From the NCBI RefSeq assembly GCF_900095885.1, contig NZ_LT615367.1, positions 3,658,001-3,722,000 on the forward strand: a stretch of DNA of 64,000 nucleotides, in the 5' to 3' direction. The notes below the pieces were generated by a model that was not told the DNA's origin, searched no databases, and saw only the letters and a program-made list of their open reading frames with translations. Below, piece by piece: positions 22,556 to 60,594 of the stretch. A program made the position numbers and the translations under genes. Origin of the DNA: Dickeya aquatica. GTDB lineage: Bacteria; Pseudomonadota; Gammaproteobacteria; Enterobacterales; Enterobacteriaceae. Each line of letters starts with the position of its first letter. Position 1 is the first letter of the stretch.

Positions 22556-23530
22556 TCATGATTGTTCCCCAAACACCCCGAGCCACGGGTGCCAGCACCA
22601 CGCCCGGTTGTCGCGGGTGCTGATGCTGATTTCACCAAAGCGATCGCTGACTCTGGCTAACTCCCACTGTTTTTCCTCAGCCAGTTGCAGATAACGCGCG
22701 GTGTAATCCATCTCTACCCACTGGCTGACGCCATCGGCCATAGCCTGTTGTACTGAGCGAATCTCATCGGTTTTTTTCCAGCCGCTCGGCCCATCGTCCT
22801 GCAACATAAAGACCGGATCGTCGCCTTCATCTTCCAATCGCAGCCAGTAACGCTGCTGCGGGTCTGAGCGGCGAAACGGCGTGCGCCGCTGTAGTTCGCC
22901 GTTCCAGTGCAACGCAACCTTCCACCACAACACCGCGGCCGGTTTATCCGTCGGCCGCGGTGTTGCCCTCCCCAACAGCATTAACCTTAATGCTGCGTGT
23001 TCGAGGCTGATTAGCGTCAGATTTTTGAGATCTAACGGTGGCTCGGTAATACGCGGCGCGGCGCTGATGTGCTGGTAGTCTTCCGGTTTGAGGATCTCCC
23101 GCAGGTCGTGGCTGGCGAGTGTGAAACCGTGCTCCGATTCAAAACCGGGGCGAAGGAACACCACGTTTTCGCCTTTCAGCGCCCGCACGTTATGGCTTAG
23201 CAGATAAAAGTTAGGAGAGGTCGGCACATACTCGTCACGCTGGCGGTGGCGCAGAATACGCCCGGCTAACTGGATAAATGAACGCATCGAGCTGGGTTCA
23301 GCGATGGCCCAGTCGTAATCGTGGTCACGGCCGACTTCCGCCACCGAGGTGGCCAGCACCACAAACAGGTGATGCTGCTGCGGCTGCCGTTCGATGGCGT
23401 CACGAATTTCCGCCACCTGCCACAGTGCCTGCGGGTCTTTGCGCATCAGTGCCGCATCCAGCCGCGCTTCGATGTGGGAGCGCATCGCCAGCGGGTGCTG
23501 GCTGTGATACACGCAATAATGCACGCAGTA
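22556..23530 (-). pseudogene. cas3: cas2-3, C-terminal fragment cut off by the prophage
   Basis: 324 codons of Cas2-3 continue in frame from the prophage edge. They start CVHYCVYHSQHPLAMRSHIE and include helicase motif VI (QLAGRILRHRQRDE near 23250) of the second RecA domain, and the C-terminal domain to HPWLGVFGEQS. Any protein would have to start inside, for example at ATG 23524, and would lack Cas2, HD nuclease and Walker A. Joined to 58281-60594 minus one TACT copy it gives a 1094-residue protein, the normal I-F length. Confidence 0.95.
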
Positions 23531-23633
23531 TGTAGCGTGGCGAAATTTTTCGCATAGATTTGCAATAGATTTTACACAGCGCGAAGGCGCAGATATTGCG
23601 CCTTTTGCATTATGTAAAACCTTTCGCCGCCTT
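23531..23633 (+). promoter_or_regulatory. Prophage right end with transposase-binding repeats
   Basis: The first 103 bases inward from the right terminus hold no gene. They contain copies of a short motif in the same inward direction as at the left end: TTTTTCGCATAG (23546-23557), ATTTTACACAGCGCGAAGG (23569-23587) and CCTTTTGCATTATG (about 23601-23614). They correspond in position to the R1-R3 MuA sites of Mu. Site limits are approximate. Confidence 0.6.
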
Positions 23634-24335
23634 TTAGTTTGTGATTTTCGGGTATGGCTGGATATTAAACAACTTTGTGTTTAGTCTCTTTCTCGCCCGC
23701 TTGTTTAGAAACCTGATATACCGAAACTGCCGGAAGCGATGCGCTGTAGCTCGCTCTTTGTTCTCTCTTAGATATTCACCTCTAGTGCCGCCGCGCTTAA
23801 TCGCATTCATTGCAATAGAGTGATAAAACTCACCATCTAACTCATAAAACGTTGAGTAGTGACTGCCGATATATTCAAAATTTGATGCCTGATAGACAAC
23901 CCCGGAACGGCCACAGCGCTCATCAGCAAATGTCTGAACCCATTGAACGCCGGGGTGTAGGAGCTTGATGGTTTTTAGAGAGTAGCTGATCGCTCTTGAT
24001 TCTGAATTGCGCGGCATGCAGTCATGTAGCCACATTCTATTTAGCTCCATGTACTCTTTGTTTCCTGTTCCTTCGACGACACGTTTGCCGCTTGCTGGGT
24101 TTAGCGCATACCCCCACTGCAATACGCCAACGATATCTCGCCCGGAAAATACCCCAAGATGCAAATATGAATTATTAACAAACCTGCCTGAATAATGCTT
24201 GTTAACAACAATGGCTCGAGCCAGCCAGGCTGGGATTGTTTCAACCCGCAGTTCCGGTGAGCCATACCCGACAATAGAGCCGTTGTATTTTATGATATCT
24301 GGCTTGATTAATACGCGCGACGTAAACTTCTTCAT
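23634..24335 (-). CDS. mom: Mom-like DNA adenine modification protein
   Basis: 233 residues from ATG 24335 (Mu Mom has 231); a longer frame from 24404 is possible. GNAT-like features: VVNKHYSGRFVNNSYLHLGV near residue 45, the acetyl-CoA-type region YMELNRMWLHD near 100, then SRAISYSLKTIKLLHPGVQW and TFADERCGRSGVVYQASNFEY. Mom adds a carbamoylmethyl group to N6 of adenine in phage DNA and protects it from restriction. As in Mu it is the last gene at the right end. Three GATC sites precede the start. No com gene is seen upstream. Confidence 0.82.
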   Translation of the reverse strand: MKKFTSRVLIKPDIIKYNGSIVGYGSPELRVETIPAWLARAIVVNKHYSGRFVNNSYLHLGVFSGRDIVGVLQWGYALNPASGKRVVEGTGNKEYMELNRMWLHDCMPRNSESRAISYSLKTIKLLHPGVQWVQTFADERCGRSGVVYQASNFEYIGSHYSTFYELDGEFYHSIAMNAIKRGGTRGEYLRENKERATAHRFRQFRYIRFLNKRARKRLNTKLFNIQPYPKITN

Positions 24336-57911: not shown

Positions 57912-58280
57912 AAGAACTGGAAAGGAAAAGCGCGAGGTTTCTTTGTTAAAGAGAAAGCCAACTGCCTCCATGCTGGCAATGTGTTGATAAACATATCATT
58001 TTAAGAAATGAAACATTAAGCAATAAAACAATGCAGAGGTTCTTTTGAGGTGGCAGGAAAAGAAAGTGCGCGTGTGTTGTAAAGCCAGATTAAAAGCTGC
58101 TTAAAACGGATCACTCGACGATCAAAGCTGTGCAAAATATAACGCAGAAATAACCAGTTTTTTCCATTTTTCTCCGGGCTATGCAAAAGCCCACGATTTC
58201 CCGCAAAGCCGCGCCATTCAAGGCGTCCCGCTATTCCAGACTCTCCTAGTAAGCTATGCATAAATGATCACTCCCCCACA
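57912..58280. promoter_or_regulatory. Prophage left end with transposase-binding repeats
   Basis: 369 bases without a credible gene. Read inward on the minus strand there are three similar sites: TTATGCATAGCTTACTAGG (58245-58263), CTTTTGCATAGCCCGGAGA (58171-58189) and ATTTTGCACAGCTTTGAT (58121-58138). The shared core TTTTGCAYAGC also occurs at the right end. They correspond to L1-L3 of Mu. An 81-codon open frame from 58261 crosses them and has no ribosome site. Confidence 0.65.
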
Positions 58281-60594
58281 AGTAATCCGTCGGCGAGGGC
58301 ATCGCCATCAGCGCACGCGCCACCGCCACCAGCGGGTTGATGTTCGCCATGCGAATCACCCCCAGCGACACGGTTTTGCCGCCGGAATGCGTCTGGTGGT
58401 GATGCTGATGCAGCGCAAACACCCGCTGGTGCAGGGTGTGCGCCACCGCCCGGCACACCGCGCTCGCTTCTCGCGTCGGGCTTGCCACCGGTTCAATTTC
58501 CGCCCAGCGCAGCCGCTGCTCCTGCTGTTGCAGCTTGTCGATACGCCCGGTGACAAACGCCTGATGCTGAGTGGCAAAAGCCTGGGTATCAGCAATCTGA
58601 TGGCACTGGCTGTCGAATTCATCAAACCAGCCGCAGCAAATACTCAGCGGCGTGCCCGGCTCGCCGTACGCCTGCTGCCAGGCGGCGCGGCCTTTCAGGT
58701 AGGCTTCGAACAGCGCGCGGATCAACGCCGGTGGCAGCGTGGCGGAGGACAACAGCACCCGTGAGCCGAGCATCCCCGCCCAGTTCACCAGCCGACACAG
58801 CGCGGGCAGGTCTTCCAGCCCAAAATCGTCCGGCTCATCCAGCACCAAATCCGAGGTGAGCAGCCGCAGCATCGGCGCAATCTGGTGGCCACCGCGCAGG
58901 CTTTCGGTCGCGGGCATCAGGTGGTCGATGGTGGTGACCAGCACCGGCGCACTCAGCAGTTGATGCAGCGTCGGCGATTTTTCCAGCCAGGTTTTCAGCC
59001 GACCGTCATCCAGCGAGCCGTCGTAACTGACGTACTGATGCTCGCTAAACAGCGACTCAGCCGATTCGCTGCCGGTTTGCACCACACGCGTTGCCTGCTC
59101 CTGCTGGCGCAGCTCATGCAGTTCCTGCACCGCCTGCGAGCCAATCAACACCGCCAGGTCGTCTTCATCCAGCGTCAGGCGCTGGCGCAGGGCATCGCCG
59201 GTTTGCAGCGTCAGGGTGCGCAGGCCAAGTGCTACCGAAAAGCGACACCCGACGGATTCATCTGCCAGCGCGTACATAATGCGGGCATTCGCCAGCGTCT
59301 TGCCGCGCCCGGTAGACGCCATGTTGACGCCAAAAAAGCCGTGGCGAGCCGCCTGCTCACGTATCGCACAAACCTTGTCAAACGCTTTATCCTGCCAGCG
59401 GAAGCGCGCATCGGTGCTGCGCTGGCGAAAGCCTTTGTGCCGGGTGATGGCTGGCAGCGTGTCGCGCAGGTGCGGCAGGCTACGCCCGAGCAACAGCGCA
59501 TTCTGTGCCACGCCGACGCAGTGCTCATCCAGTTGCTGTTTGAGCTTGCCGGTCTTTCTGTCGGTATTGGCCCACACGGTGTAACGCGGGTCTTGCCAGC
59601 CGGAGGTGGCATCGGAAGAGGAGTAATGGTGGTCTGCCAGCATCAGCGCCAACCGTGCCAGATGCACCGTCAGCCGTTGCTCCAGTTGGCCGAAGGTCAT
59701 CAACGAGGGTAACGTCAGCGCACGGGTGGCGAACTTGCGCGCCTTTTCACACCAGACGCGGCTTTGCAGCGGCGTGCCGTGCGGGAACTGCCACACCTGT
59801 TGCCATTCCTGCGTGCTGATATCCGGGCGCAGGTGATTAACGGCATTCCAGCAGGGTGACACCAGCCCGGTCAGCCACTGACTCACCTCACCTAAATCAG
59901 GGCTGGGATTGCCGCTCTTGTCATCCCAGAACATCGGCAAACGGTGGTGGGAAACAATCAGCCAGCCCACCACCTGCGCCAGCGGCGGCAGGCTTCCAAA
60001 CGGCGAGGATTTGGGGATTCTCTCATCCTGCTGCACGCGCGCCAGCAACGCCGCTTCCTCCTCCGCGCGGATAGCGGCCAGCGCCGTCAGCCAGCCTGTA
60101 TCGTCCTGCTCGCCGACAAACGCCTGAAACAGCCGCAGCGACACCCACTCGTGGCGAAGCGGCTGGCTGCGCGGCCCCTTGCCCCGCAACCCGGCCTGAA
60201 ACAGCGCATTGGCTTTGCCGATGTCGTGAAACAGCCCGGCAATCGCCGCCAGCAGGCTGAAGGCTTCGGCGCTGTGCCACGGGTTTTCATCCTGGCGGCG
60301 CAGAATATCGCGCCCGGTACGGTTGGTCGGCACACTGCCTTGCGGATTGAAACGCCGCAGGTTGCCGACAATCCACAACAGCTCGGTGTGATTGGCGCTG
60401 CGGATCCAGTGGCAGGCCACCGCCGTGTTGCGCCGCGCGGTTTTACGCAGCAACTGGCGCAGTGTTTTCAGCCCCTCTTCGGTGATGGCGGTCTGCCAGG
60501 TGCGTTCCCCTTTGCGCTCGGCGAACTGATCCAGCACCCGGCGGGTTTCCACCAGCGCCCGCTTGTTGCATTCGGCAATCAGCAGGATGTTCAT
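58281..60594 (-). pseudogene. cas3: cas2-3, N-terminal fragment interrupted by the prophage
   Basis: Starts at ATG 60594 in an ATGA overlap with cas1; 771 codons of host sequence remain, and the frame then ends in the prophage at 58246. It has the Cas2 domain (MNILLIAECNKRALVETRRV), the HD nuclease (IAGLFHDIGKANALFQ near residue 140), Walker A (ASTGRGKTLANARIMYALAD near 420), DExD-like LVLDEPDDFGLEDLPAL and SATLP. Helicase motif VI is on the other side. A truncated protein might fold its Cas2 and HD parts but cannot be a full helicase-nuclease. Confidence 0.95.

What the first reader, a model, noticed from the sequence alone, without database searches (positions are those of the whole stretch)
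22556..60594. A Mu-like prophage has split cas2-3 of a type I-F CRISPR-Cas system
The 34.75 kb element separates codons 1-771 of cas2-3 from the last 324. The gene needed both for target cutting and, through its Cas2 part, for spacer uptake is disabled, while cas1, csy1-3, cas6f and both arrays stay open. A transposable phage landing in the defence nuclease gives itself and later phages a susceptible host.
Basis: seen in the sequence. Interest (0 to 1): 0.93.

Follow-up and report, generated by a model that had tools for sequence, protein, structure and literature searches.

The report
Targeted phage landed inside CRISPR nuclease
In what is most likely a soft-rot bacterium, a jumping phage that the cell's own CRISPR memory recognises has inserted itself into the CRISPR cutting gene, and the two newest memories each miss this phage by one letter that the phage seems to have changed, which preserves in one genome a record of an arms race and how it probably ended.

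Summary
A 34,750-bp Mu-type transposable prophage (23531-58280) with a 4-bp target duplication (AGTA) splits the only cas2-3 of a type I-F system. Seven of eight other genomes of the genus (most likely Dickeya) carry cas2-3 whole; the empty site aligns.

Ten of 73 I-F spacers match it with at most 8 mismatches, eight of the ten with the CC motif. The leader-proximal (newest) spacer of each array matches except at seed position 2. At both places the prophage base differs from every relative fetched (80 of 80; 7 of 7), as expected of CRISPR escape mutations. Two near-identical prophages with different early modules sit elsewhere in the genome.

Best reading: the host vaccinated itself, the phage escaped by seed mutations and lysogenised, and residual self-targeting favoured the lineage whose cas2-3 the phage had broken. 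Insertion, matches and derived bases are shown; order and selection are inferred. The same conflict, ended by Mu-like transposition, is known in laboratory Pseudomonas aeruginosa. A type I-E system with open genes and three partly matching spacers remains, which tells against a defenceless host and partly against the selective account.

The parts
23531..58280 (-). Mu-like transposable prophage P1, early (repressor/transposase) end at 58280, mom end at 23531
   Evidence: Ends shared with P2 and P3; MuA-type transposase, MuB-like ATPase, Mom, tail, head and lysis families
23527..23530 (.). Target-site duplication AGTA, copy at the mom end
58281..58284 (.). Target-site duplication AGTA, copy at the early end
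58281..60594 (-). 5' part of cas2-3: Cas2 domain, HD nuclease region and first part of the helicase; the frame runs about 11 codons into the phage and stops at 58246
   Evidence: PF21384 over its cut-off, PF00270 DEAD under its cut-off; Cas23f positions 1-782 and Cas3-HD model PDLC00940 at residues 107-250; frame end
22556..23530 (-). 3' part of cas2-3: rest of the helicase and C-terminal domain
   Evidence: PF22590 over its cut-off, PF21802 under it; Cas23f positions 785-1110; aligns to residues 767-1078 of solved chain 5b7i_A
60591..61592 (-). cas1 (I-F), upstream of the insertion
   Evidence: PDLC00925 E 2.9e-154
21204..22601 (-). csy1 (cas8f), downstream of the insertion
   Evidence: PF09611
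20251..21207 (-). csy2 (cas5f)
   Evidence: PF09614
19232..20248 (-). csy3 (cas7f)
   Evidence: PF09615
18673..19251 (-). cas6f (csy4)
   Evidence: PF09618
17255..18543 (-). CRISPR array A, 22 repeats, leader at the high-coordinate side next to cas6f
61890..64000 (+). CRISPR array B, part inside the window; 53 repeats in all, continuing to contig position 3723070
18484..18515 (-). Spacer A1, newest of array A
61918..61949 (+). Spacer B1, newest of array B
43573..43604 (-). Protospacer of A1 in the terminase gene, CC motif, single mismatch at seed position 2 (codon 507 GTG; first base A in 80 of 80 relatives)
51806..51837 (+). Protospacer of B1 in gene 51729-52193, CC motif, single mismatch at seed position 2 (codon 129 GCG; third base A in 7 of 7 relatives)
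54865..56913 (-). MuA-type transposase
   Evidence: PF09299, PF02316
53931..54824 (-). MuB-like AAA ATPase
   Evidence: PF13401, phrog_296 DNA transposition protein
57228..57911 (+). CI-like repressor, in the region that differs between P1 and P3
   Evidence: PF01381, PF07022

Best explanation
Natural record of a CRISPR-prophage conflict that a transposable phage ended by insertion. (1) The Dickeya lineage repeatedly took spacers from this Mu-like phage family. (2) The newest spacer B1, and probably A1, came from a close version of this phage; uptake is expected to need Cas1 and Cas2-3, so cas2-3 was then whole. (3) The phage lineage acquired a base change at seed position 2 of both protospacers. 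(4) It became a prophage, now present as three near-identical copies with different early modules. (5) Single seed mismatches weaken but may not abolish I-F cutting, and partial matches prime new uptake, so lysogens with a working system would pay a cost. (6) The lineage in which the phage landed in cas2-3 lost cutting and uptake, probably csy expression too, and survived as a stable polylysogen. Shown by sequence: insertion, matches, derived bases, copies. Inferred: order of steps, polarity, and selection.
For: Insertion with matching 4-bp duplication and an aligning empty site. Ten of 73 I-F spacers match P1 with at most 8 mismatches; reversed spacers gave three hits, all at 9. With the 29 I-E spacers, 101 spacers give 13 hits up to 8 mismatches in the 34,750 bp of P1 and one (8 mismatches) in 473,900 bp of host DNA, about a tenth of the genome. 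Eight of the ten I-F matches have 5'-CC. A1 and B1 differ from P1 only at position 2; the prophage base differs from 80 of 80 terminase relatives fetched and 7 of 7 relatives of the B1 gene. The A1 change is in P2 and P3 too, the B1 change in P3. No spacer of the 73 matches P1 perfectly, as if uptake had stopped. In P. atrosepticum I-F a seed C3T change gave only partial escape from chromosomal targeting (PMC3630108 section 9), and priming is strong (PMC4117759 passages). In P. aeruginosa PA14, DMS3 lysogens with an imperfect self-match lost CRISPR through phage transposition and became polylysogens (PMC11406979 abstract, passages and section 15).
Against: A type I-E system with open genes at contig 458-467 kb has three spacers with 3-5 mismatches to P1, so this cell tolerates partial self-matches in at least one system, unless that one is silent. 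The escape changes may already have made P1 tolerable, leaving the insertion neutral. A1 is equally near another phage, L111 (one mismatch, position 16), so its source need not have been P1's own ancestor. C6T in the seed did not relieve targeting at all in P. atrosepticum, so the effect of a position-2 change here is untested. P2 has no B1 site within 9 mismatches. One genome only; no reads. The three copies share about 25-31 kb without substitutions beyond those at two complex indels, and copy-specific indels look like unresolved repeats, so the A1 change in three copies may not be three independent readings.
Confidence: 0.6

Rival explanations
1. Chance landing: the phage had escaped by its two seed mutations, and insertion into cas2-3 was one random event of no consequence, kept because I-F was little used.
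For: Both newest spacers are already mismatched in the seed; the I-E genes stay open with partial matches.
Against: cas2-3 is 3.3 kb of 4.5 Mb, so a random insertion hits it about 0.07% of the time, about 0.2% for three (arithmetic, chosen after the fact). A seed change gave only partial escape in the closest tested system. None of 37 other genomes of the order with a match at E 1e-40 shows a split gene.
Confidence: 0.25
2. Phage tactic: the phage is adapted to land in cas genes to disarm hosts for itself and later phages.
For: Two more prophages of the same family are present.
Against: The flanks of P2 and P3 map to other loci of a genus genome; selection on survivors explains the site without targeting. 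A targeting device was not looked for beyond the family searches.
Confidence: 0.04
3. I-F was already lost or silent before P1 arrived, and the insertion is later decay.
For: No spacer later than the seed-mismatched A1 and B1.
Against: cas1, csy1-3 and cas6f remain open, and B1 is nearer to P1 (1 mismatch) than to any of the three relatives listed for it (4-5 mismatches), so loss is probably not old.
Confidence: 0.08
4. Assembly artefact: P1 is not in cas2-3.
For: Long near-identical repeats; the left flank of P2 carries a copy of P3's flank with 0 substitutions and 11 indel columns, as a mis-join would.
Against: The matching AGTA on both sides links the two P1 junctions; the early-end junction joins a P1-only module to cas2-3.
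Confidence: 0.03

Closest known systems
Phage-mediated loss of type I-F in PA14-DMS3 lysogens (PMC11406979)
   Same: I-F system, imperfect self-match to a Mu-like prophage, a change at seed position 2, loss of CRISPR through transposition, polylysogeny
   Different: There the phage-mediated losses were deletions of 34-335 kb, and position 2 changed in the spacer; here a clean insertion without deletion, in a genome not known to be from an experiment, and the phage protospacers changed
D3112/DMS3-like and other Mu-type transposable phages
   Same: MuA/MuB, mom, head and tail genes; terminase 66% identical to Pseudomonas phages LESphi4 and H70 and 74.7% to Klebsiella phage ST405-OXA48phi1.1. That LESphi4 and H70 are D3112-like is recalled
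   Different: 4-bp rather than 5-bp duplication; for window 28000-48000 the named phage records gave only a 98-bp DNA match, to RcapMu
Self-targeting P. atrosepticum I-F with an escape change in the PAM (PMC3630108)
   Same: Natural chromosomal self-match tolerated through a one-base change (passages)
   Different: There the cas genes stay functional

Membership tests
Type I-F CRISPR-Cas | cas1, cas2-3 fusion, csy1-3, cas6f in order | tested here: met
   cas2-3 in two pieces
Type I-F CRISPR-Cas | 28-nt I-F repeat with about 32-nt spacers | tested here: met
Type I-F CRISPR-Cas | Functional cutting and spacer uptake | not testable with these tools
   Expected lost, gene split
Mu-like transposable phage | MuA-type transposase and MuB-type ATPase | tested here: met
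Mu-like transposable phage | TG...CA ends and insertion at unrelated sites | tested here: met
Mu-like transposable phage | 5-bp target duplication | tested here: not met
   4 bp at P1 against empty sites, 4 bp at P3 by its own flanks only; P2 shows none. The phage is called Mu-like for its genes and ends, not as a proven member of Mu's own genus
CRISPR conflict resolved by transposition (PA14-DMS3 type) | Imperfect spacer match to the resident prophage | tested here: met
CRISPR conflict resolved by transposition (PA14-DMS3 type) | Phage at the CRISPR-cas lesion | tested here: met
CRISPR conflict resolved by transposition (PA14-DMS3 type) | Fitness gain on CRISPR loss | not testable with these tools
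   Needs culture

The most novel reading that the evidence does not exclude
CRISPR immunity against a transposable phage acts as a filter that concentrates surviving lysogens in which the phage has destroyed cas genes, so that prophages matched by their host's own newest spacers should be found inside cas operons in nature more often than chance, with seed escape first and knockout second as a two-step route.
Probability: 0.35. Interest if true: 0.75.

Novelty: new member of a known kind. Interest (0 to 1): 0.57.

Why it matters
Loss of CRISPR in self-targeting lysogens is known from laboratory evolution. Here one genome holds the successive traces together: older partly matching spacers, two newest spacers, derived seed changes in the phage against both, and the same phage inside the nuclease gene. 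It makes testable whether targeted transposable phages are enriched in cas genes in nature, and whether seed escape alone lets a prophage live beside an active I-F system.

Tried and rejected
A phage source with an exact A1 or B1 match: none in IMG/VR. Near relatives in named phage records: for window 28000-48000 only a 98-bp match to RcapMu; by protein. In the genus, window 40000-52500 was found at length only in the own genome; four of the eight others gave short matches of about 110-290 bases each. The A1 site with up to 3 mismatches in 392 genomes of the family: 2 of 392, the own one and one other with 3 mismatches. Known anti-CRISPR families: none named among 10 P1 proteins in NCBIfam and 10 in Pfam, nor among the 30 given to PHROGs; not every P1 frame was given, the P2 and P3 early modules were not scanned, and no dedicated anti-CRISPR library was on hand. 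A phage-borne promoter driving csy: one promoter-like site on the minus strand at 24429-24400; 3 sites in all against 1.5 (sd 1.0) in shuffles, so left as speculation. Clustering of phage-matching spacers around 40.7-43.9 kb as a priming signature: not claimed, because that region is conserved and matches survive there more easily. Other natural cases in print: apart from PMC11406979 (laboratory), the listings (12 of 25 shown) held no title or abstract start that I recognised as a prophage insertion in cas genes, and searches returned no paper; these were narrow word searches of open-licence papers. DOI 10.1038/s41586-020-1936-2 is not held and nothing here rests on it. Of PMC6990116 I saw passages only. 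Not examined: splits of cas2-3 among the 38 loci; self-matches in the nine tenths of the host genome outside the stretches; the cas2 gene of the I-E set.

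Full report
What is there. The window lies in a single-contig genome of 4,501,560 bases. Its genus contains Dickeya undicola: a 2.5-kb stretch of the genus genome G007 at this locus is found exactly in the named D. undicola record, so the host is most likely Dickeya; the species was not determined. The six I-F genes run cas1, cas2-3, csy1, csy2, csy3, cas6f on the minus strand. cas2-3 is interrupted by a 34,750-bp element, 23531-58280. The flanks repeat AGTA; with one copy removed they align without a gap around the site to 10 of 11 sequences compared, the exception being a 76% identical Brenneria. The gene would then have 1094 codons before the stop (arithmetic). The N part holds the Cas2 domain and the HD region, the C part the end of the helicase and the C-terminal domain; that the cut falls inside the second helicase domain is inferred from these. 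The N-terminal frame reads about 11 phage codons before stopping (coordinates).

How unusual. Seven of eight other genus genomes have cas2-3 whole, one has none. In the order, 38 of 247 genomes match the family at E 1e-40. Of the 37 besides this one, 33 give 1003 or more of 1110 positions in one frame, four give partial matches (one in an 85% complete draft, three to the first hundred positions of frames of about 990 residues), and none shows two separated pieces at that threshold.

The phage. It has a MuA-type transposase, a MuB-like ATPase, a CI-like repressor, a Mom protein at the far end, and tail, head and lysis genes. Two more copies lie at contig 1,726,118-1,759,828 (P2) and 3,165,473-3,200,184 (P3). 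P1 and P2 have no substitutions from 23531 to about 48.5 kb except 5 at two complex indels, and P1 and P3 none to about 54.5 kb except 2 at one of them; beyond that the early modules differ, including transposase and repressor. That they differ in immunity is inferred from this.

The match to the host's own memory. I took 73 I-F spacers, leaving out an 8-nt piece in array B. Ten match P1 with at most 8 mismatches: A1, A6, A7, B1, B5, B6, B7, B12, B21, B51; eight have 5'-CC, B5 and B12 do not. Reversed spacers gave three hits in all the stretches searched, each at 9 mismatches. In a wider test 101 spacers (72 I-F, leaving out one of 63 nt, and 29 I-E) gave 13 hits up to 8 mismatches in P1 and one in 473,900 bases of host DNA. 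Spacers A4, A6, A7, B5, B6, B7, B12 and B21 each match some of the 87 fetched IMG/VR relatives of the phage with 0 to 2 mismatches, with no reversed-spacer hit up to 6, so the lineage has met this family repeatedly.

The two newest spacers. Leaders end in CTACA next to A1 and B1, and the far repeats are degenerate, so A1 and B1 are the leader-proximal spacers. Each matches P1 except at position 2, with CC beside it. In the terminase gene the prophage codon 507 is GTG; the first base is A in 80 of 80 relatives fetched, the best 80 of 426 found. In gene 51729-52193 codon 129 is GCG; the third base is A in 7 of 7 relatives. So the prophage base is derived at both. Against the spacer sequence, one change is Met to Val and the other is synonymous. 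A1 is as near to another phage, L111, which mismatches at position 16 instead; B1 is nearer to P1 than to its other relatives, which have 4-5 mismatches. The chance that two single mismatches both fall in the first eight of 32 positions is about 1 in 16, and both at position 2 about 1 in 1000, the latter seen after the fact (arithmetic). The stronger point is the derived state at both sites, which fits escape from these very spacers.

How it most likely works. Uptake of A1 and B1 should have needed Cas2-3, so the insertion is probably later than both. In P. atrosepticum a seed change at position 3 gave partial relief from chromosomal targeting and one at position 6 gave none (PMC3630108 section 9), and priming is strong (PMC4117759 passages). 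With several near-matching sites in the chromosome, a working I-F system should cost the lysogen. In PA14 lysogens of DMS3 with an imperfect match, 7 of 18 evolved isolates carried phage-mediated deletions of the CRISPR region, one beginning in cas3, and two had the second nucleotide of the self-targeting spacer changed (PMC11406979 section 15; phage origin of the seven). The present genome looks like the natural counterpart, with a clean insertion. The I-F operon of P. atrosepticum is transcribed from the cas1 promoter (PMC4499141 passages), so csy1-3 and cas6f are probably shut off here as well. A review of self-targeting also lists mutation of the cas operon among the ways out (PMC6990116 passages).

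Results against this reading. The genome also has a type I-E set (cas3, cas8e, cas11e, cas7e, cas5e, cas6e, cas1) with open frames and 29 spacers, of which E10, E15 and E28 match P1 with 4, 5 and 3 mismatches beside AGG, AGG and AAG. If expressed it should suffer the same conflict, yet it stands; whether it is silent is unknown. Assembly in the long shared stretches is uncertain: most of the small indels lie at 39.8-46.3 kb, and the left flank of P2 carries about 1.0 kb of P3's flank. The P1 insertion itself rests on the matching duplication and a P1-only early module.

Judgement. The structure is as certain as the assembly; the derived seed bases are strong evidence; the selective account is probable. 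It is a new and well-documented natural member of a known kind of conflict, not a new mechanism.

Noticed in passing
G000:C1:1725104-1726117 (L015 about 3105-4118): The left flank of prophage P2 is about 1,014 bases shared with the left host flank of P3, with 0 substitutions and 11 indel columns; P2 has no matching target duplication. Mis-assembly or captured host DNA.
   Followed up: partly
window 41904-43423: The portal gene of P1 is split by small indels (longest open stretch 243 aa, against 515 in P2 and 460 in P3); probably consensus errors in an unresolved repeat.
   Followed up: partly
23527-23530 and 58281-58284: The target duplication is 4 bp, and by its own flanks 4 bp (GCTA) at P3 too, where Mu-like phages usually make 5.
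   Followed up: partly
L200 11135-12936 (G000:C1 about 467.1-468.9 kb): I-E array with three spacers partly matching the prophages; spacers 13 and 19 are the same over the 28 bases printed.
   Followed up: partly
62790-62879: Array B has an 8-nt spacer followed by a shortened repeat with the array A variant letters, a possible recombination scar between arrays.
   Followed up: no
G000:C1:3722381-3722443: Array B spacer 42 is 63 nt long with a repeated GGCAGC.
   Followed up: no
61890-64000: Array B changes repeat variant (GAGTAGG to GGATAGG) after repeat 21, and the 53rd is GAGTAGG again, which suggests phases of growth.
   Followed up: no
G005:C13:74502-75129 (L071, L076): A genus genome without I-F cas2-3 carries short matches to the P1 early region (89% over 291 bases, 69% over 284), perhaps a relative of this phage.
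   Followed up: no
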